36,136 nt of DNA. Origin: Natrinema thermotolerans DSM 11552. Its GTDB lineage: Archaea > Halobacteriota > Halobacteria > Halobacteriales > Natrialbaceae. The translations under genes and the position numbers were made by a program. Where the stretch lies: positions 72,088 to 108,223 of the forward strand of contig AOIR01000032.1 of the NCBI GenBank assembly GCA_000337115.1, read 5' to 3'. Every line of letters starts with the position of its first letter. The stretch's first letter is position 1. A model generated the notes under the pieces. It searched no databases and was not told where the DNA came from. It saw only the letters and a list, made by a program, of their open reading frames with translations. This document shows positions 5,207-16,218 of this stretch, in pieces.

Positions 5207-5333
5207 AGGTTCGTCTAGCGACGAGAGGGAGATATGGTTTCTGGTGACTCTCACGTCACCACCGACCCCTTCGTTTCAACTGGAGACCGACAGACGAGGC
5301 TGGAAGATTGCTCGAGTCGAAACGGCGGAGAAG

Positions 5334-5406
5334 TAGTCCATCCTGGATTCGAACCAGGGTCGAAGCCCCCAGAAGGCTTCAGGATTGGCCACTACCCTAA
5401 TGGACT
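5334..5406 (-). tRNA. tRNA-Gln (anticodon CUG)
   Basis: Read on the minus strand, AGTCCAT at 5406-5400 pairs with ATGGACT at 5341-5335, followed by discriminator A at 5334. The D-arm contains AGTGGCCAA. The anticodon stem AAGCC/GGCTT encloses loop TTCTGGG, giving anticodon CTG (codon CAG, Gln). The T-arm CCTGG-TTCGAAT-CCAGG is perfect. CCA is not encoded and no intron is seen. The length is 73 bases. The A at position 1 fits archaeal tRNA-Gln, which is charged with Glu and then amidated. Confidence 0.95.
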
Positions 5407-5522: not shown

Positions 5523-6317
5523 TCATGACGTGTCGACCGTCGGCGGTTCGTAATGCTCCGCTCGATGGCAGTTCGCACAGAGGACGCTACACCGCTCGAT
5601 TTCGGCTCGTATCCGCGTTTTCGGCCGATCGTCCGCGACCAATTTCGTGACACTCGCCGCCTTCGGAGGGGCGTCGTGATGGTAATCCAGACACCCGGGA
5701 TCGGACTCTCCACAGCGGTTACACCCCCGCTCTCGTTTCCGGTCGTGAACCCACTGACGGCGCTCCCGAGTCGGCTGCGAGTAATGGATTTTTCGGTGGC
5801 AGTTCGCACAGAGGACCTCACACTTCTCGATCTCGTCACGGAGCCGGTCTTTTCCGTAGCCGTAGGTCACCATCTTCCCGATTGCCATTTCCTTCGTCGC
5901 TGTCTCGAGGTGGTGGAAATCGAGGCACGCGACGCTGTCGACCGCACATCTGGAACAGCCACGCTCTTGTTTGATCTCATTGAGCCACGAACGAAGCCGC
6001 GAACGACGGCGTAACGATCGTTCCGTATTCCAGTCGACGTTTCGGTAGTGCCACCGCTGGTCGACCGAGAGTTCCTCCCAGACGAGTCCGGGCGGCAATT
6101 CGACATCAGCCGGCTTCGGCTCCACGCGGGATCCGGTAGACGGAGCCGTCTCGAGCCCCGCTCTCTCCTTCGCATCGTTCCAACCACCACAGGTCCGAAT
6201 TATCGTCGCGGAAGCCGGCGTCAGTCTCAGCTCCTCGTACTGCGCCTTCGTCGGCGACTCACCCAGTCGCTCGGCGGCCTCCCGCAGCGCCTCGAGGCAC
6301 TCCGCCTCGGAAACCAT
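5523..6317 (-). CDS. Tandem double-HNH endonuclease-like protein with a homing-endonuclease-associated repeat
   Basis: This 264-residue protein has three modules. Residues 1-57 read as one helical 'homing endonuclease associated' repeat (LREAAERLGESPTKAQYEEL ... GGWNDAKERAGL). Two HNH-type zinc units follow, at about 121-179 and 199-256. Each has CxxC, then CLD(F/Y)HH, then VLCANCHRxxHY, so both retain the zinc cysteines and the H/N/H catalytic positions. It is probably a DNA-binding nuclease; the target is unknown. ATG 6317 is chosen over 6425 because the upstream residues look non-coding and overlap the promoter of the divergent purO. The gene ends 117 bases upstream of tRNA-Gln, on the same strand. 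The duplication could serve single-chain double-strand cleavage, which is inference. Confidence 0.75.
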   Translation of the reverse strand: MVSEAECLEALREAAERLGESPTKAQYEELRLTPASATIIRTCGGWNDAKERAGLETAPSTGSRVEPKPADVELPPGLVWEELSVDQRWHYRNVDWNTERSLRRRSRLRSWLNEIKQERGCSRCAVDSVACLDFHHLETATKEMAIGKMVTYGYGKDRLRDEIEKCEVLCANCHRKIHYSQPTRERRQWVHDRKRERGCNRCGESDPGCLDYHHDAPPKAASVTKLVADDRPKTRIRAEIERCSVLCANCHRAEHYEPPTVDTS

Positions 6318-6433
6318 ATCGCCGTTGGCCGCGGCATTCCATATAAACCCTCGCCGGCGCTCCGATCCGAAGCCTGGCGAGAGAGCGGGCGCGAACCGAC
6401 ATTCCTTTTCCCCAGTCGCGCGCACGCTCGAGT

Positions 6434-7024
6434 ATGTACGTCGGACGATTCGTCGTCGTCGGTCCCGAGGTCGGCGCCTATCGCGTCTCCTCGCGATCGT
6501 TCCCGAACCGCAAGCTCACCGCTCGAGACGAGGCCCTGACCGTCGGACCCACGGCGGACGCTCCCGAGACGGACAACCCCTACGTCTCCTACAACTGCCT
6601 GCGGGTCGTCGAGACGCCGACCGGTGAGACGGCCGCCTTCGGCAACGGCTCGCACGTCGATCCGATCGCGGAGAAACTCGAGTTGGGGTATCCCGCCCGC
6701 GACGCCCTCGCCGAGAGCCTGCTGGCGCTTGACTACGAGAAAGACGACTACGACACGCCCCGGATCGCAGCGACGATCGGCGGCGACGGCGAGGCCCTGA
6801 TCGGGACCGTTCGCAAGGACGCCCTGCTGATCGAGACCGTCGACGAGCCAACGCTGGTCGCGACCTACGAGAAGAACGCGCCCGAGGCGTTCGAGTTCGA
6901 CGCCGACGGGGCCGCGGCGGCCGCGAGCGAGGCCTACGACCTCGAGTTCGAACACGCGGTCTGTGCGGCCGGCGTCGCTCGGACCGACGACGGGTTCGAG
7001 ACGGCGATCGAGAACGGCAAGTGA
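6434..7024 (+). CDS. purO: Archaeal IMP cyclohydrolase PurO
   Basis: PurO (EC 3.5.4.10) closes 5-formyl-AICAR to IMP, the last step of purine synthesis in many archaea. It replaces the cyclohydrolase half of bacterial PurH. The 196-residue length fits the family. Typical segments are [10 protein letters not shown] at the start, [33 protein letters not shown], the middle [19 protein letters not shown], and the late [14 protein letters not shown]. The fold is Ntn-hydrolase-like, and the protein is cytosolic. The start ATG lies about 24-30 bases after a CCTTTTC stretch (6404-6410) that may be the TATA element. The gene diverges from the HNH gene with 116 bases between their starts. Confidence 0.92.
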
Positions 7025-7103
7025 CGCCGCTTGCGGACGGAATTGATCGGCGGACGTGAGAATCGTCGGTGTCTTTTTATCAACACCTATATGATCGACA
7101 TTT

Positions 7104-8480: not shown

Positions 8481-8996
8481 ATGTTCGAGCGCGTGCGTGA
8501 GGACGTCCGGGCGATGGCCGAGCGCGACCCCGCCGCGAAGGGGCGACTCGAGGTCCTGTTGTGTTACTCGGGGCTGCACGCGGTCTGGGGGTATCGGCTC
8601 GCCCACCGTTGCTGGAACCGCGGCGGCGGGTTCCGGTTGCTCGCCCGACTGCTCTCCCACCTGGTGCGCTGGCTGACCGGCGTCGAGATCCATCCGGCCG
8701 CCGAACTCGGCCGCCGGGTGACGATCGACCACGGGATGGGCGTCGTCGTCGGAGAGACGGCCGAAATCGGCGACGACGTTCACATGTATCACGGCGTCAC
8801 GCTCGGCGGCGACACGAACGAACCGGTCAAGCGCCACCCGACCGTCGAGGACGGCGCGCAACTGGGCGCGAACGCGACGCTGTTGGGCGACATCACGATC
8901 GGCGAGGACGCGGCCGTCGGCGCCGGCTCGGTCGTCACGAGCGACGTGCCGGCAGGGGCGACCGTCGTCGGGGTTCCCGCAGAGCGGGTCGACTGA
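8481..8996 (+). CDS. cysE: Serine O-acetyltransferase
   Basis: This protein makes O-acetylserine from serine and acetyl-CoA (EC 2.3.1.30), the entry to cysteine synthesis. Residues 1-60 form the helical N-domain (short archaeal/plant-like form), with [19 protein letters not shown]. The left-handed beta-helix follows ([41 protein letters not shown]), with the catalytic Asp-His pair in DHG and YHGVTLGG. It ends in the usual [13 protein letters not shown]. The length is 171 residues, as in archaeal short forms. A longer ORF-like leader (8354-8480) is discussed under rejected items. The cysteine synthase partner is not in this window. Confidence 0.9.
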
Positions 8997-9174: not shown

Positions 9175-12100
9175 ATGGGGGGTCAGACCAAGCGTGCGGC
9201 AGCGGTAGTATTTTCGCTACTTATTGCGACATCAATGGTCGTAACGCCCGTGCTGGCGAACGGGGGAAGTACAGGCTCAACAGCGACTCGATCGGAGTTC
9301 GTCGACGGAACGGATCCGTTCGACCGAGTAGGTCCGAACGGGCCGCCGAATCAGACGAAATCGAAAAGAGGTCCACCGGACCACGCTGGCCCGGGCAATA
9401 GCCCACCGGACGGGGCGGACGGCAACGGCACTAACCGACCGGTGGTCAATGAGAACTTCACTGCGAACACGTCGACGGGCGCGCTCCTCAGAGCGGCGTC
9501 TCACCTGTACCGACTCGAACCGGACAGCCAAGCCGAAGCGGATGCCGTCAACGACACGCTCGTGTCGATCAACGCCTCGCTATCGGAGTCCCGATCGTTT
9601 CGTCGAGCCGACTCCGAGGCGTCGTTCGAGCATCTGAAAGACGCACAGAAAGACCTCAAAACGGTCGCGAAGGAAACGGACAACGAGACGGCGGTCGAAA
9701 ACGCGAGTCGCCTCCTCTACGAGGCGAGCGCACTCAATTCGAAACGCGCGATCTATCACGCCGAGTTGTCGTTCGATCGATACGGCGACGCGTTTCCGAA
9801 CCACGGACAGGAGCGCAAAACGGATCAGGCGATTATCAACGCCAGAGCGGCGTTCGAACGAGGTGACAGCGCGGTTCCCCCGGGAACACCGCGGCGCGGA
9901 CCGCCGGGAGATTCGCTCGAGCAGACGATTCAGTCGCACGCGAACGGCATTACGCACCACAGAACGGCGTGGCGACACGCCGAGCGAGCGCTCGAAACGA
10001 TCGCGAAACACACCGAGCCTCGGTTAACGCTACGGCAGGGACACGCCTTCGAGGAGAACGAATCGATCCACGTTCGTCTCGAGGCCGTAGTCACCGACGC
10101 TCGCGCCCACGCCTTCGACGAAGCGAACGTCACACTCGAGAACGGGACCACGGAGCCGATCGAGTTCGGATCGCAAGCGACGATATCGAGAACCACTGGC
10201 AGTACGGAACTCGATCTCGGTCCTCGTCCGGAGAACCAGACGGTCACGGTTACTGTAACGTCGAGCGACAATCCGGGTCGAAGCGTCGAAGAGACGCTCG
10301 AAATTCGGATCGAGGAGCGAGACATACACTGGGATCTGCCCGCTCCCGACGAGTACGCTCGAGCCTCGGTGACCGATTCGGAGTCCAACGTTACCGTCGA
10401 TGTCGAAGGAGACGGCGTTCACAAGAGCCTGATTTCGGTCGCGAACCGATCGACCGAGACCGGGAGTCAGTACCGCGCCGGTCCGATGGTTCGGATCGTT
10501 AACGAGACGTCGTTCGACCAAGCCGAAGTACGGGTCCCGATCAACGAGACGGTGTTAGAGAACACTGACGGGAACCTGACCATTTACAAATGGGATCCGA
10601 GTTCGGACGAGCGGTGGCACGCGGTCGAAACCGATATCGATCCCGACAATCTGACTGCGACGACGACCGTTTCCGAGTTCTCGTACTTCACGGTCGCCGA
10701 AGCCGGGGCCAGCCAGTCCTATCAGGACAGAGCGTCGCCCGGGTGGCCGCAGTTGGACGACTTCCAATCCGTAGACGGCTGGGATCGGACCGGTTCCGTG
10801 TCGGTGGTCAACGGGACGGCAGTCCTCGAAAGCCAGGCCGAAGACGACGAGAACGACGGTGGCAGCGGTGGCGGCATCGGTGGCGGCGGTGACGACGGCA
10901 GTGACGACGAGGACGGAGCCGACGACGGAAACGAGGTGACCGATCCGCCGGAACTCTGTTTGCCGATTGTCGGCTGTGTGGAACTTCCCCCATTACCATT
11001 GGGAGGGTTAGGAAGCGCCGCCATAGAGCAGTCGTCGCACGACATCGCGACGCAGTCTCCCGAGGAACACGCGCGACTCACGCGAACTGCCGAGATTCCG
11101 GCGGGAGCGGAGCGCGTCTGGTTCGAAACGCGTGTCAAGAGTTCCGCCACGGACGGAAACGCGACGATCATCGTTGAGGGAGAATCCGACTCGAAGCTCG
11201 TCCACCTGAATCTTGTCCAGTCAGACGATTGGATCACTGAAGAGGCCGACCTCTCCGAGTTCGAGGGCGAAGAAGTGACGGTTCGGATCGAAACTCAGGG
11301 GACCGCCGAACTCAGGGTCGACTACGTCGGCATTCTGGTCGATTCGACCGGGAGCGGCTTCCCGGACGAGGTCGAGCGGTTGGACCTGCGGATGCCAGTC
11401 GGCGAGGACGGCGTCCGTAACACCCCGCTGAACTTGGACCCGAACCGGGCTGATACGAGCGGCAACGGCCTTCGTGACAGCGAAATCGTCGATATCGAAT
11501 GGGGATACGATGCGGCCGGTTCCAACGGTCAGTGGCAGCTCGAGGGCGAGGCCGTCGACGCCGAGGCCCACCCTGCACGGATCGATACGACTGGTGACGG
11601 ACTGACGGACGCTGAACAACTCGAAGGCTGGGAAATAACGTACACGTCTTCCCGTGAAGATTCGCTCGAACTACTTTCCAAACTGCAAGACGCGGATAGT
11701 ATCGATGAGCTAGAGGCCTCGGAAAGTGATTTCCTCGAGACCGAAACCGCATCTCCCGATCCGCTTAGCAATTACACTGACATCGACGGGGTATCGGACG
11801 CCAAAGAAAGACGACTAGGGACGGATCCCGAATCACGTGATACGACCGGTGACGGGATTCCTGACTGGGCGTACCGAGGCGGCGAGTACGATCCGACGCT
11901 GTTCGACGTTAGTTCTCCGGAAATCATAATCGAAGACGCTGACTTCAACGATCCGAACGTGGACGTATCCGGGTTGGATCTCCGTGATTGGGAGGCACGA
12001 GTAGCCGGAAGTTACGAGGTCGAATTCACCGTGGACGGCCTGGCTGATCCCGAAGAAGCACGGGTCATTTACAACGGTGACGTCGAAGAGACGGTTCCCC

Positions 12101-13572
12101 TAGGAAATAGACGAAGGAGCGGGGATGTCAAGTTCGATATCGGGACGGTCGATACGTTCACCGACGCCTTCACTGGGTCGCTAGTGACGGTCGAGGCCGA
12201 GGATGAACACGAAGTTATCAACGGAGTCGGCAGTACCGAAGTGCCTGCCGTCGAAGTAAACGGTGTCTGGGCTGCAGCCTCGGAAGAAATTCGCGCTCAG
12301 GGCGTCTCTGACGCTAGGATAGAGCGAAATTTGGGGACGCTACAGGGGGTCACATACGGTGCCGGTGAATCGGCCGAATCCGTCCAAGCCCTGTACGAAA
12401 GTCCGGTCGAGAGTATCGCTGCCTTGCGAGAGATTCCTGCCGCCATCGTCAATTTGGACGAGGTTATTGCGGCGATGCCAGAGTCGATCGAAAAGGAACA
12501 GCGTGATAACAACCCACACGATCCAGGAGATCGTTACTACGAGTCATATCGCCAAGGCTGGTACGAGGGCTACATCGCTTGGTTCGTCATCGAAAGCGCG
12601 ATTCCGGTCGGAAAAGCCGGGTCTGCAGTCAAGAGTTCCAAACGGATCCAGAAGACCGTTGATCGACTCAGCGGGCCACGCATTCGCCAAGCGGCCCGGA
12701 TGGCTGGCCGAGTAGACCACGCCACGAAAGCGCCAATTCGATACGGGAAACTGCAGTTCTCGCGTGGGCTCTCTACAGGAATCGGCGTCACTAAGAAAAC
12801 CGGTGAGCGGATACTCAGTCCGGTACCGACGGTCGGGAAGCAGTATCAGGTGTCGAAACTGCTCAGCCGACACGATATCGATGGGGGAAAACTGAACCGC
12901 TACTCACCCGATGAGCAACGGAAAGTCGGGGAATTCACCAACAGGTACGGTGACGAGGGAGCAGAAATCGCCTCAGAAGGTGGTCCGGTTTTCCAACAAA
13001 TCGCCGCAAGTGATACGCTCGACGCTGCGACAACGGACCGGATAGTACGTGCATACGATCAGCGTATAATTGACGAAGACGACATCCAACGGATTGCGCG
13101 TGGTCTTGACGAGGGTGATATCGATCAGGAGGCTATTCATCGTGCGCTCGGGCAGGCAACCAATCTCGACCAAAACGGTCACGCCATAGAGCGTCTTCGG
13201 GCAGCCGATGAGGTGAATGCAGAGTATCCTTCTAATTACGACGACCCGTATGCCTCCGGAACAATAGCTGTTGAATATGTGACTGAAACGGAAGAGAAGT
13301 TCGTAAGGGTTCACAGAGAGAGTAATCAAGTGCGATCGTGGACCATGCGGAGGCATCAGATAGAAGGACTAGAACCTGTCGAAATACAAGAAAAATTCTC
13401 GTTACCTGAGGAACCAGTCTACGTGTCTGACGTAGGCGTTCCAGCAGGTACCAGAATGCGGACTGGTGTTGTTGAATCCAACTTCGGCGGACAGCGCGGA
13501 GCGACCCAGTTCGAACTGCGCGAGAAAATCTCCTCGGAGAATTTCGATAATCAACGTGAAATTCAGCCATGA
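9175..13572 (+). CDS. Large secreted modular protein with a polymorphic-toxin-like C-terminus
   Basis: The protein is 1465 residues long. A Sec signal peptide (about 1-30, cleavage near VLANG) precedes a helical region (about 80-290), a beta-rich region (about 295-500) and an Asp/Glu/Gly linker (about 556-590). A short CLPIVGCVELPPLPLGG segment follows, then a jelly-roll-like part. DxTGxG Ca-binding motifs lie near residues 723, 760, 804 and 889 (thrombospondin-3 type). From about 1120 an amphipathic GYIAWFVIESAIPVGKAGSAVK segment resembles pre-toxin regions. The last ~110 residues (about 1355-1465) resemble bacterial RHS/hemagglutinin toxin tips: RSWTMRRHQIEGLEPVEIQ, VPAGTRMRTG (from 1422) and FGGQRGATQFEL (from 1437). 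A TNT/ADP-ribosyl-type NAD-consuming activity is possible but unproven. The stop overlaps an immunity-like gene. The 3' half is visibly more AT-rich than its neighbours, which suggests transfer. Confidence 0.75.
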   Translation: MGGQTKRAAAVVFSLLIATSMVVTPVLANGGSTGSTATRSEFVDGTDPFDRVGPNGPPNQTKSKRGPPDHAGPGNSPPDGADGNGTNRPVVNENFTANTSTGALLRAASHLYRLEPDSQAEADAVNDTLVSINASLSESRSFRRADSEASFEHLKDAQKDLKTVAKETDNETAVENASRLLYEASALNSKRAIYHAELSFDRYGDAFPNHGQERKTDQAIINARAAFERGDSAVPPGTPRRGPPGDSLEQTIQSHANGITHHRTAWRHAERALETIAKHTEPRLTLRQGHAFEENESIHVRLEAVVTDARAHAFDEANVTLENGTTEPIEFGSQATISRTTGSTELDLGPRPENQTVTVTVTSSDNPGRSVEETLEIRIEERDIHWDLPAPDEYARASVTDSESNVTVDVEGDGVHKSLISVANRSTETGSQYRAGPMVRIVNETSFDQAEVRVPINETVLENTDGNLTIYKWDPSSDERWHAVETDIDPDNLTATTTVSEFSYFTVAEAGASQSYQDRASPGWPQLDDFQSVDGWDRTGSVSVVNGTAVLESQAEDDENDGGSGGGIGGGGDDGSDDEDGADDGNEVTDPPELCLPIVGCVELPPLPLGGLGSAAIEQSSHDIATQSPEEHARLTRTAEIPAGAERVWFETRVKSSATDGNATIIVEGESDSKLVHLNLVQSDDWITEEADLSEFEGEEVTVRIETQGTAELRVDYVGILVDSTGSGFPDEVERLDLRMPVGEDGVRNTPLNLDPNRADTSGNGLRDSEIVDIEWGYDAAGSNGQWQLEGEAVDAEAHPARIDTTGDGLTDAEQLEGWEITYTSSREDSLELLSKLQDADSIDELEASESDFLETETASPDPLSNYTDIDGVSDAKERRLGTDPESRDTTGDGIPDWAYRGGEYDPTLFDVSSPEIIIEDADFNDPNVDVSGLDLRDWEARVAGSYEVEFTVDGLADPEEARVIYNGDVEETVPLGNRRRSGDVKFDIGTVDTFTDAFTGSLVTVEAEDEHEVINGVGSTEVPAVEVNGVWAAASEEIRAQGVSDARIERNLGTLQGVTYGAGESAESVQALYESPVESIAALREIPAAIVNLDEVIAAMPESIEKEQRDNNPHDPGDRYYESYRQGWYEGYIAWFVIESAIPVGKAGSAVKSSKRIQKTVDRLSGPRIRQAARMAGRVDHATKAPIRYGKLQFSRGLSTGIGVTKKTGERILSPVPTVGKQYQVSKLLSRHDIDGGKLNRYSPDEQRKVGEFTNRYGDEGAEIASEGGPVFQQIAASDTLDAATTDRIVRAYDQRIIDEDDIQRIARGLDEGDIDQEAIHRALGQATNLDQNGHAIERLRAADEVNAEYPSNYDDPYASGTIAVEYVTETEEKFVRVHRESNQVRSWTMRRHQIEGLEPVEIQEKFSLPEEPVYVSDVGVPAGTRMRTGVVESNFGGQRGATQFELREKISSENFDNQREIQP

Positions 13573-13907
13573 GTATTGTAACTACAAACGGACGTGAGCT
13601 AACGATCGATGGAAAAACTATCGAACTCCCAAATCAGATCGAAACGGTCTTGGAAATCAATGGTCTGGCGGTAGTCCTATTAGATACCACTGGGCGTTCC
13701 CCGGCTCGAGATAACGTCTGGGCGTTCGATATGGACGGGAGTCTCGTATGGAAAGCTGAACCAGTATTCGAACCATCGAACGACGCCAATACGTACGTGC
13801 AAATTCGACGAGAGGGGAGTGATCTCTGGGCGAGTGATTGGAAGGGGATGGAGTACAAGCTCGATCTCCAAAACGGCAAGCAGATCGAGGAGAAATTCAG
13901 GAAATAA
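13569..13907 (+). CDS. Candidate immunity protein, intact unit
   Basis: This 112-residue cytosolic beta-rich protein has two blade-like motifs: NVWAFDMDGSLVWKAEP and LWASDWKGMEYKLDLQNGKQI. Its ATG overlaps the toxin TGA (ATGA), so it is translationally coupled. This is the arrangement expected for a protein that neutralises the toxin made from the same message. The same layout recurs in the two broken units downstream: Thr/Ile-rich start, FDxDG turn, L-W/C-x then YxxDxxxGxxL. Small proteins with the DG(Y/M)EYxxDxxTGE ending are common beside bacterial polymorphic toxins, by my recollection of the family. Function is inferred from position and pattern. Base composition is AT-rich, like the 3' end of the toxin gene. 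Confidence 0.7.
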   Translation: MSIVTTNGRELTIDGKTIELPNQIETVLEINGLAVVLLDTTGRSPARDNVWAFDMDGSLVWKAEPVFEPSNDANTYVQIRREGSDLWASDWKGMEYKLDLQNGKQIEEKFRK

Positions 13908-14006
13908 TCGAATGGTACTCGTCATACAAGGTGTATCGTTCTCTTGGAGTTCTCAGACTGTCTCACAGATTTCTCTGCGGGCAAGCTACTGGCTCGGGGG
14001 ACACCG

Positions 14007-14423
14007 ATGATCCTGCAAATCAACACGGGACACTCCGAGATCGTGATCAACAACCGAACGATTTCCCTCTCTCACGGAGCGCAAAGCTGTACGGTCGTCG
14101 ATAATACAGCGATCGCGTTGCGTACCGGCTGGTGCCATCCCGACATCGAGTTTTGGGAAGACCTCGGGGTCGATATGAGTCATAAAACTGGCGGCGCTGA
14201 CTTCGAGTTAGAGAACAAATATCGGAACGTAGTTGGCTTCGATGGCGATGCAAACCCACAATGGATACTCCCTGAAGCACCACACGAACCGCCTGAGGAC
14301 GAGGAGCCCTATTACATGAGCCTTTGGCAGACCGACGGGTCCCTCTGAGTCCAGAACAAGAACCAGCACGCCTACCGCGTTGACCCGGACTCCGGTGAAC
14401 TACTCGAGAGCGTCTCGGCGAAC
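14007..14423 (+). pseudogene. Broken immunity-like paralogue (unit 2), in-frame TGA at 14346
   Basis: The ATG at 14007 follows a GGGGG run. The protein starts MILQINTGHSEIVINNRTIS, which lines up with the start of the intact unit upstream. It has the FDGDANPQW turn and then reads TDGSL-stop-VQNKNQHAYRVDPDSGELLES in one frame. The TGA at 14346-14348 sits exactly where unit 1 has Trp (DLWAS) and unit 3 has Cys (NLCGY). A TGG-to-TGA change is therefore the simplest explanation. As it stands, a 113-residue truncated product would lose the last strand pair. The reading frame then runs without a further stop into unit 3. The 99 bases between unit 1 and this start hold no gene. Confidence 0.7.
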
Positions 14424-14751
14424 GTCCTCTACCTCGGCAGCGAGAAGATCGAATTCGACGGCGGCTGGGTCGGGAAGGTTCTCCCCCATCGACGACGATC
14501 TCGTCGCCGTCATGCTCGAGACCTCGAGCCACCCGGATTCGGACGGGCGGAATCCCTACGTGTTCGATCGCGACGGGACAGAACGCTGGTGGGTCGGTGA
14601 CCACCCCCACAGTGATGCGCCAGCGTCGGCACCGCCGTTTACCGACATCTGGCTCGACAACGGCAACCTCTGTGGCTACGCGACCGACGGCTACGAGTAT
14701 CGGTTCGACCCGGAAACGGGAGAGTTACTCGACACGATCTGGCGGAAGTGA
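14424..14751 (+). pseudogene. Broken immunity-like paralogue (unit 3), frameshift in a C-run at 14483-14487
   Basis: The first part (LYLGSEKIEFDGGWVGKVL) is in the frame of unit 2. The rest (PIDDDLVAVMLE ... YVFDRDGTERWW ... DIWLDNGNLCGYATDGYEYRFDPETGELLD) is one frame over. Removing one C from the five-C run restores a single reading frame through KVLPIDDDL. No start codon or stop separates it from unit 2, so either a junction deletion fused the two or a tandem two-unit gene existed. If translated at all, it could begin at ATG 14512 and give a fragment. A homopolymer sequencing error is possible for this lesion, but it would not explain the TGA in unit 2. Confidence 0.65.
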
Positions 14752-14823
14752 CACGAGCCGACGAGCCGTCGGAACTCGAAACCACGCCAGAGAGCGGACA
14801 GAAATGGCCTCAGCGGCCGTGTC

Positions 14824-16218
14824 TCAAACCAGCGGTTCGACCAGTTCCCGACCCGCCTCGAGCAACGCCCCCACCCGCGCCTCGTCTTCGGCCTCGGCGT
14901 AGATCCGCAGCACGGGCTCGGTCCCGCTGGGACGCACCAGCAGCCACGAGCCGTCGGCCAGCAGCAGTTTGAACCCGTCGGCGGTGTTGACGTCCTCGAC
15001 GGCGGTCCCGGCCACTGTCTCGGGGATTTCGTCCTCGAGTTCGGAGACCACCCGCGCCTTCTCGTCGTCGGGACAGTCGACGCTGGTCTTGTCCTGAACG
15101 ACTGTTCCGTGTTCCTCGAGCAGGCGATCCACCCGGTCGTCGATCGGCTCCGCGGCGTGCATCACGGCCGCGAGCAGGGCCATGAGGACGCCGTCCTTCT
15201 CGCGGACGTGGCCCCGGACGGTGAACCCGCCCGACTCCTCGCCGCCGACGAGGGCGTCGTGTTCGCCGATCGCCTGCGCGACCCACTTGAAGCCGACCGG
15301 GACCTCGTGAACCGACTCCCCGTGAGCCTCGGCGACCCGGTCGATCAGGTAGGTCGTGGAGACGGTCCGGACCGCCGGCCCCGAGTCCGTCTCGAGCAGG
15401 TAGTCGTAGAGCGCGGCGAAAAAGAGGTTCTCGTCGAGATAGCCCCGCTCGGGCGTGACGACGGCGAGGCGGTCGGCGTCGCCGTCGTTGGCGATCCCCA
15501 GCTCGGGCGCGGTGTCGTCGGCGGTGACGAGGGCGATCAGCGTCTCGAGGTTCTCGGCGGCCGGTTCCGGCGCGCCGCCGCCGAACTCGGGGTCGGGCTC
15601 GCAGCGCAGACACTCCAGGGACGCGCCGGCCCGCTCGAGCAGGGCGTCGGTGGTCCCGCGGCCGCTGCCGTGCATGGCGTCGTAGGCGACGGTGCGGTCG
15701 GCGAGGTCGACGTCGCCGGCCATCGATTCGACCAGCTCGAGGGCGGCGTCGGCGTGTGGCCCTGCGAAGTCGACCTCGGTGACGGCCCCGTGGTCGGCCT
15801 CGGGGAGCGGATCTGGCTCGGCGAGCCGGTCGGCGATGGCGTCGGTAACGTCGGGGAGGGCCGGCGCGCCGTCGCCGGGGATGAACTTGACGCCGTTGTA
15901 CTCCGGCGGGTTGTGCGAGGCGGTGATCACCAGCCCGCCGGCGAGGTCACGGTCGGCGATGGCGTAGGCGACGAGCGGCGTCGGTCGGTCCCGATCGGCG
16001 AGCAGGACGTCGAACCCGTTGGCACACAGCACCCGTGCCAGTTCCTCCGCGAACCCCCGCGAACCCTCGCGGGCGTCGTACCCTACTGCGACCGGCCCCT
16101 CAAGGCCCTCGTCGGTGAGATACGTCGCGACCGCTTGCCCCACCATCCGAACGCGGGGCGACGTGAACTCCTCGAGCGTCGCCCGCCAGCCGTCGGTACC
16201 GAAGCTGATCGACTCCAT
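14824..16218 (-). CDS. Phosphohexomutase (phosphoglucomutase/phosphomannomutase family)
   Basis: This 464-residue alpha-D-phosphohexomutase interconverts 1- and 6-phosphosugars by way of a phosphoserine. It has ISFGTDGWRA at the start, the catalytic TASHNPP loop (Ser101), the Mg loop DGDADR (Asp245, 247, 249), the sugar loop GEESGG (about 326-331) and the phosphate loop RPSGTEP (about 429). All four signatures are intact. The exact sugar (glucose, mannose or glucosamine) cannot be told from the motifs. A haloarchaeal role in S-layer glycan or nucleotide-sugar supply is likely by inference. It is transcribed towards the toxin/immunity locus, with 72 bases between them. Confidence 0.92.
   Translation of the reverse strand: MESISFGTDGWRATLEEFTSPRVRMVGQAVATYLTDEGLEGPVAVGYDAREGSRGFAEELARVLCANGFDVLLADRDRPTPLVAYAIADRDLAGGLVITASHNPPEYNGVKFIPGDGAPALPDVTDAIADRLAEPDPLPEADHGAVTEVDFAGPHADAALELVESMAGDVDLADRTVAYDAMHGSGRGTTDALLERAGASLECLRCEPDPEFGGGAPEPAAENLETLIALVTADDTAPELGIANDGDADRLAVVTPERGYLDENLFFAALYDYLLETDSGPAVRTVSTTYLIDRVAEAHGESVHEVPVGFKWVAQAIGEHDALVGGEESGGFTVRGHVREKDGVLMALLAAVMHAAEPIDDRVDRLLEEHGTVVQDKTSVDCPDDEKARVVSELEDEIPETVAGTAVEDVNTADGFKLLLADGSWLLVRPSGTEPVLRIYAEAEDEARVGALLEAGRELVEPLV

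What the first reader, a model, noticed from the sequence alone, without database searches (positions are those of the whole stretch)
14007..14751. Two decayed immunity paralogues: a Trp-to-stop change and a C-run frameshift
Unit 2 has TGA at 14346-14348 exactly where its relatives have Trp or Cys. Unit 3 returns to one frame if one C is removed from 14483-14487. Orphan immunity genes that accumulate and decay downstream of a toxin are the signature of repeated toxin-tip exchange. Two independent lesions in a row suggest relaxed selection rather than a single sequencing error.
Basis: seen in the sequence. Interest (0 to 1): 0.7.

Follow-up and report, generated by a model that had tools for sequence, protein, structure and literature searches.

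The report
One broken two-domain orphan immunity gene
Next to a salt-loving archaeon's toxin gene and its working antidote lies the wreck of a second, older antidote gene; relatives show that such leftover antidotes stay behind, and often decay, when the toxin's killing tip is swapped, which is an ordinary process well recorded here in an archaeon.

Summary
The two lesions are real (in-frame TGA at 14346-14348; frame change at or beside the C5 run 14483-14487), but they are not in two paralogous genes. "Unit 2" and "unit 3" are the two domains of ONE gene (14007-14751). Intact two-domain relatives exist, with the same 20-residue linker and the same domain-1 loop motif, and "unit 2" falls in the domain-1 clade (99/95 support). 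So this is one pseudogene with one nonsense and one frameshift lesion. The intact gene before it (13569-13907) is the cognate immunity of the secreted toxin 9175-13572. The toxin tip is predicted to be NADase-like (best fold match Tne2); the immunity is predicted to be beta-propeller blades. The same tip-immunity pair occurs in bacteria (a Capnocytophaga toxin with Rhs-type sequence, an Arenicella MAG). The cassette sits at a variable site between a cysE-like gene and a phosphomannomutase gene, nearly empty in most congeners. One congener has a different tip there and a 27-codon relic of the same two-domain gene beside the mutase gene: a fossil of tip exchange. Across relatives, copies touching a tip were never broken (0/25), against 8/29 orphans (p=0.005). 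The orphan-decay reading is supported; "two paralogues" is not.

The parts
14007..14751 (+).
14007..14345 (+). Domain 1 up to the lesion: 113 codons with the loop motif [AP]D[FIV]xx...RN found in intact two-domain relatives
   Evidence: domain-1 clade 99/95
14346..14348 (+). In-frame TGA inside domain 1 (nonsense lesion)
   Evidence: homology continues across it
14349..14480 (+). End of domain 1, the 20-residue interdomain linker, and the first strands of domain 2, still in the frame of 14007
   Evidence: two-domain profile positions 105-143, E 2.9e-7 in a four-sequence search; linker lengths
14478..14490 (+). Frame change inside domain 2, at or beside the C5 run 14483-14487
14485..14748 (+). 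Rest of domain 2 in the shifted frame; stop codon at 14749-14751
   Evidence: 82 bits to the single-domain model, which included this sequence
13569..13907 (+). Intact single-domain immunity gene (imm1, 112 aa), ATG overlapping the toxin stop; cognate of the toxin
   Evidence: predicted propeller-blade fold
9175..13572 (+). Secreted polymorphic toxin, 1465 aa
   Evidence: signal peptide judged by eye
13162..13569 (+). Toxin tip (C-terminal domain), predicted NAD(P)+ glycohydrolase-like
   Evidence: weak Pfam TNT hits in family members
14683..14886 (+). End of the pseudogene plus spacer plus mutase 3' end, alignable to the relic locus in congener G073 (71% identity)
8481..8996 (+). cysE-like serine acetyltransferase gene, left border of the variable site (name from sequence, not a family scan)
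14824..16218 (-). Phosphomannomutase/phosphoglucomutase-like gene, right border of the variable site (name from sequence, not a family scan)

Best explanation
14007-14751 is the pseudogene of one two-domain orphan immunity protein that once neutralised an earlier toxin tip at this locus or in competitors. The locus is a haloarchaeal polymorphic-toxin cassette in a variable site between a cysE-like and a phosphomannomutase gene. A large secreted toxin carries a swappable C-terminal tip, and the cognate immunity gene overlaps its stop codon. When a new tip-immunity pair replaced the old tip, the old immunity gene stayed downstream as an orphan. With no partner toxin in its own cell it was no longer essential, and it has now picked up one nonsense and one frameshift lesion. 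Shown: the gene is broken twice, is one two-domain gene, is not touched by a toxin tip, and has a positional relic in a congener with another toxin fragment. Inferred: that its former partner was a two-domain-type NADase-like tip, the order of events, and that immunity acts by binding the tip.
For: Two-domain intact homologues in G143, G305, G299, G212, G441, G438, G444, G468; identical 20-residue linker in nine of them and in the window; domain 1 groups with their domain 1 at 99/95. Eight of these copies lie directly downstream of toxins with variants of the same tip family, so the architecture is immunity-linked. imm1 overlaps the stop of the window toxin, as cognate copies do in G026, G064, G045, G287, G234 and others. 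Broken copies: 0 of 25 beside an intact tip, 8 of 29 without (p 0.005). The site is variable: all 28 congeners keep cysE next to the mutase gene, most within 1 kb; G063 has a homologous toxin with an unrelated C-terminus, G071 and G073 toxin fragments; G063 and G073 share one orphan gene (56% identity) and G073 keeps a 27-codon relic of this gene abutting the mutase gene.
Against: No close intact orthologue was found, so ancestral codons and order of lesions cannot be read directly. Domain 2 is not resolved between the single-domain and two-domain families. Without the window, the relic and one fragment, the broken-orphan excess is only p 0.05. Many orphans are intact (21 of 29), so being an orphan does not by itself mean decay.
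Confidence: 0.85

Rival explanations
1. Two separate tandem single-domain immunity genes, joined in frame by a later deletion and each with its own lesion.
For: Domain 2 scores better with the single-domain model (82 bits; that model included it) than with the two-domain model (21 bits) and is not placed with other second domains. Arrays of separate single-domain orphans exist in G030 and G029.
Against: Domain 1 belongs to the two-domain clade (99/95) and has its loop motif; the linker has exactly the length found in nine intact two-domain proteins; no start or stop lies between the units.
Confidence: 0.1
2. Assembly or sequencing error in an intact gene.
For: A C5 homopolymer is a classic error site; the assembly is a 68-contig draft; the post-lesion sequence still has coding-like composition, GC3 about 0.8 after both lesions (rotated to the reading frame).
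Against: Two different lesion types in one gene, one of them a substitution; broken copies of the same family in other assemblies; a more decayed relic at the same place in G073.
Confidence: 0.08
3. The TGA is the true end of a short functional protein and the downstream part is read from an internal start.
For: An ORF of 134 codons ends at the TGA and another open frame (14380-14751, TTG start) covers most of domain 2.
Against: All intact relatives continue through the stop with conserved D and invariant G; the TTG frame starts with about 33 codons of out-of-frame sequence and lacks the first strands of domain 2.
Confidence: 0.03

Closest known systems
Orphan immunity arrays of V. cholerae T6SS loci (PMC5361080)
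   Same: Old immunity genes retained 3' of a new effector-immunity module after tip or effector replacement
   Different: No T6SS link was examined here; an archaeal secreted toxin; the orphan is broken and two-domain
Serratia Rhs NADase loci with orphan immunity (PMC10539506)
   Same: NADase-type tips, a cognate immunity gene, and orphan immunity downstream; the authors note lacking a 'genomic fossil record' for the order of events
   Different: The immunity fold here is predicted propeller blades; the orphan is decayed; the congener relic supplies a partial fossil record
Polyimmunity loci and polyimmunity proteins (PMC3482391)
   Same: Tandem immunity genes and multi-domain immunity proteins
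   Different: That survey reported most immunity families absent from archaea; the present family has no Pfam model
Staphylococcus esaG immunity strings with pseudogene esaG4 (PMC9484751)
   Same: String of immunity paralogues beside a toxin, one of them interrupted
   Different: Firmicute T7SS, one family with recombination between paralogues
Tne2/Tse6/TNT NAD(P)+ glycohydrolase toxins
   Same: Predicted fold of the tip (Tne2 6b12 probability 0.98; Tse6 TM 0.46) and weak TNT profile hits
   Different: Sequence identity about 10%; catalytic activity untested; different immunity fold

Membership tests
Orphan immunity gene of a polymorphic toxin locus | Homologous to immunity genes that sit directly downstream of toxin tips | tested here: met
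Orphan immunity gene of a polymorphic toxin locus | No cognate toxin tip directly upstream | tested here: met
   The only tip found in the window belongs to imm1 (13234-13566)
Orphan immunity gene of a polymorphic toxin locus | Intact version protects against a specific toxin | not testable with these tools
   needs a co-expression assay
Pseudogene | Reading frame interrupted where intact homologues continue | tested here: met
Two-domain (polyimmunity-type) immunity protein | Two repeats of the immunity domain in one gene, same linker length | tested here: met
Two-domain (polyimmunity-type) immunity protein | Second domain groups with other second domains | tested here: inconclusive
   (34/78)
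NAD(P)+ glycohydrolase toxin (tip of the neighbouring toxin) | Tne2/TNT-like fold | tested here: inconclusive
   probability 0.98 but E 0.056; Pfam TNT E 0.049 at best
NAD(P)+ glycohydrolase toxin (tip of the neighbouring toxin) | NAD(P)+ hydrolysis | not testable with these tools
   biochemical assay needed
T6SS/eCIS-delivered effector | Linked secretion machinery | not tested
   no scan for such genes was run; the toxin appears to have its own signal peptide (by eye)

The most novel reading that the evidence does not exclude
A previously unnamed immunity family made of beta-propeller blades, in single and double versions matched to different variants of an NADase-like toxin tip, is shared by haloarchaea and bacteria. 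The cysE-mutase site of one haloarchaeal genus preserves a readable fossil record of tip exchange, with orphans at successive stages of decay.
Probability: 0.5. Interest if true: 0.55.

Novelty: new member of a known kind. Interest (0 to 1): 0.42.

Why it matters
Tip exchange that leaves orphan immunity genes is well described in bacteria but hardly in archaea. Here one conserved archaeal site shows near-empty, intact, fragmentary and relic states across species of a genus, and an immunity family absent from Pfam lets one measure that breakage was seen only in copies without an intact toxin tip beside them. It also shows a tip-immunity pair shared between haloarchaea and bacteria.

Tried and rejected
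Pfam scan of the units: no family. Single imm1 query in the own genome: domain 2 only at E 0.12, domain 1 not found; queries built from the units themselves were needed. A search of genome contigs with the broken gene found no relative, and plasmids none, so no close intact orthologue was seen. Viral contigs hold no tip relative. An alignment of all immunity proteins was too diverse for pattern search. A weak match of the broken gene in G071 (E 0.039) looked like chance and was dropped. Weak hits in long PQQ/BamB-like proteins were taken as general propeller similarity, not family members. Programmed frameshifting or recoding was not pursued, since two unrelated interruptions would both have to be bypassed.

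Full report
What is in the sequence. A gene for a 1465-residue secreted protein runs 9175-13572, and its stop codon is overlapped by the ATG of a 112-residue gene, 13569-13907. From ATG 14007 a frame runs to TGA 14346-14348, stays open after it, and loses homology near a C5 run at 14483-14487, where homology moves to another frame that ends at 14751. The TGA is not a natural end: with the stop masked, the sequence matches intact genes in G061, G060 and G025 at 43-48% identity over residues 71-134, across the stop at residue 114. The frame change is also internal: matches to G094 and G029 span it.

One gene, not two. Intact two-domain proteins of about 216-253 residues occur in family f4 genomes. 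They match the window from domain 1 through domain 2. From the conserved TG at the end of domain 1 to the first hydrophobic pair of domain 2 there are 20 residues in all nine that were aligned, and 20 in the window. Domain 1 of the window has the [AP]D[FIV] ... RN loop motif of the two-domain set, which single-domain proteins lack. In a tree of separated domains the window's domain 1 falls in the domain-1 clade with support 99/95. Domain 2 is unresolved and looks more like the single-domain family. There is no stop and no ATG between the 'units'. The record is therefore one pseudogene with one nonsense and one frameshift lesion. The residue replaced by the stop is Trp in most single-domain relatives but mostly Leu or Ile in intact two-domain relatives, so its ancestral identity is uncertain.

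Why it is an immunity gene. Across 125 family genomes and 392 order genomes the single-domain family is sporadic. In 25 copies, single- or two-domain, the gene lies within about 200 nt downstream of a complete toxin tip of one sequence family, often overlapping the toxin stop. The window tip (13162-13569) belongs to this tip family (62%, 52%, 53% and 46% identity to G026, G101, G287 and G234). Named relatives come from H. salina, N. bangense, archaeon HArc-gm2, an Arenicella MAG and Capnocytophaga bilenii, each followed by a member of the immunity family. AlphaFold models from six-row alignments are fair for the tip (pLDDT 81) and good for imm1 (89). The tip's best PDB match is Tne2 (6b12, probability 0.98, E 0.056), with Tse6 further down, and Pfam TNT appears weakly in family members (E 0.049 and 0.19). 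That makes an NAD(P)+ glycohydrolase-like tip the best guess, not a proof. The immunity model matches beta-propeller blades (BamB, E 5e-4), in line with the sequence profile.

Orphans decay, cognates do not. Of copies with a complete tip directly upstream, 25 of 25 are intact. Of copies with no tip upstream, 8 of 29 are broken: the window gene, stops in G003, G089 and G107, frame breaks or truncation in G093 and G017, and fragments in G073 and G441. Fisher p is 0.005, or 0.05 if the window gene, its relic and the G441 fragment are left out. Three copies behind a damaged tip are intact and were not counted; copies at contig ends or behind masked sequence were excluded. The classification was made by me from the table.

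A fossil record at one site. The cassette lies between a cysE-like gene and a phosphomannomutase-like gene. All 28 other genomes of the genus keep these two genes together, and in 24 they are less than 1 kb apart. In G063 the site holds a toxin 40% identical to the window's over 882 residues but with an unrelated C-terminus, its own downstream gene and further orphan-like genes. G071 and G073 hold toxin fragments, and G053 has 3 kb of other DNA. G073 and G063 share an orphan-like gene (56% identity, truncated in G073). G073 also keeps the last 27 codons of the present two-domain gene, about 65% identical, abutting the mutase gene, with alignable sequence through the spacer (71% over 228 columns). 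The same orphans under different tips at one position are what tip exchange predicts. In Serratia, authors of a similar case remarked that they lacked such a fossil record (PMC10539506).

Known or new. Retained orphan immunity genes after effector replacement (PMC5361080), polyimmunity proteins (PMC3482391) and interrupted immunity paralogues (PMC9484751) are all described in bacteria. The 2012 survey reported most immunity families absent from archaea and such systems rare there. The present case is a new archaeal member of a known kind. Its added value lies in the comparative record and in a tip-immunity pair shared with bacteria whose immunity family has no Pfam model.

Limits. No reads, no other strain of the species and no close intact orthologue were available. 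The A1-based searches include window sequences, so their E-values for the window are inflated; the claims above rest (two-domain model built without the window). Function of tip and immunity is inferred.

Noticed in passing
L253:4926-5560 and L252:4167-5763: The same toxin-tip and immunity pair occurs in Capnocytophaga bilenii (toxin with Rhs-type sequence) and in an Arenicella MAG, so it crosses the archaea-bacteria border.
   Followed up: partly
L010/L128 (G003), L052/L119 (G089), L047/L113 (G107), window 14346-14348: All four in-frame stops seen in decayed members of this family fall on columns that are Trp in single-domain relatives (two columns, two cases each).
   Followed up: partly
L244 minus strand 9502-9840; L130 6804-7145; L131 minus strand 6720-7064; L247 4953-5279; L141 7343-7699: Detached toxin-tip sequences lie downstream of immunity genes in several relatives, possible reserve cassettes for tip exchange.
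   Followed up: no
L222 2869-9657 (G063): At the same cysE-mutase site: a toxin with a different C-terminus (nuclease-like by eye), followed by genes of 231, 268 and 234 aa without Pfam hits and a HEAT-repeat gene.
   Followed up: partly
L114 6390-8047 (G030): Array of four intact immunity paralogues with no tip directly upstream: retained rather than decayed orphans.
   Followed up: partly
window 13000-14250: G+C falls to about 0.48-0.54 at the tip and imm1 against about 0.70 in flanking genes, fitting recent import of the tip-immunity module.
   Followed up: partly
window 5523-6425 minus strand: 300-aa ORF with two CANCHRxxHY-type motifs (HNH-like by eye), near the tRNA-Gln gene at 5333-5406.
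   Followed up: no
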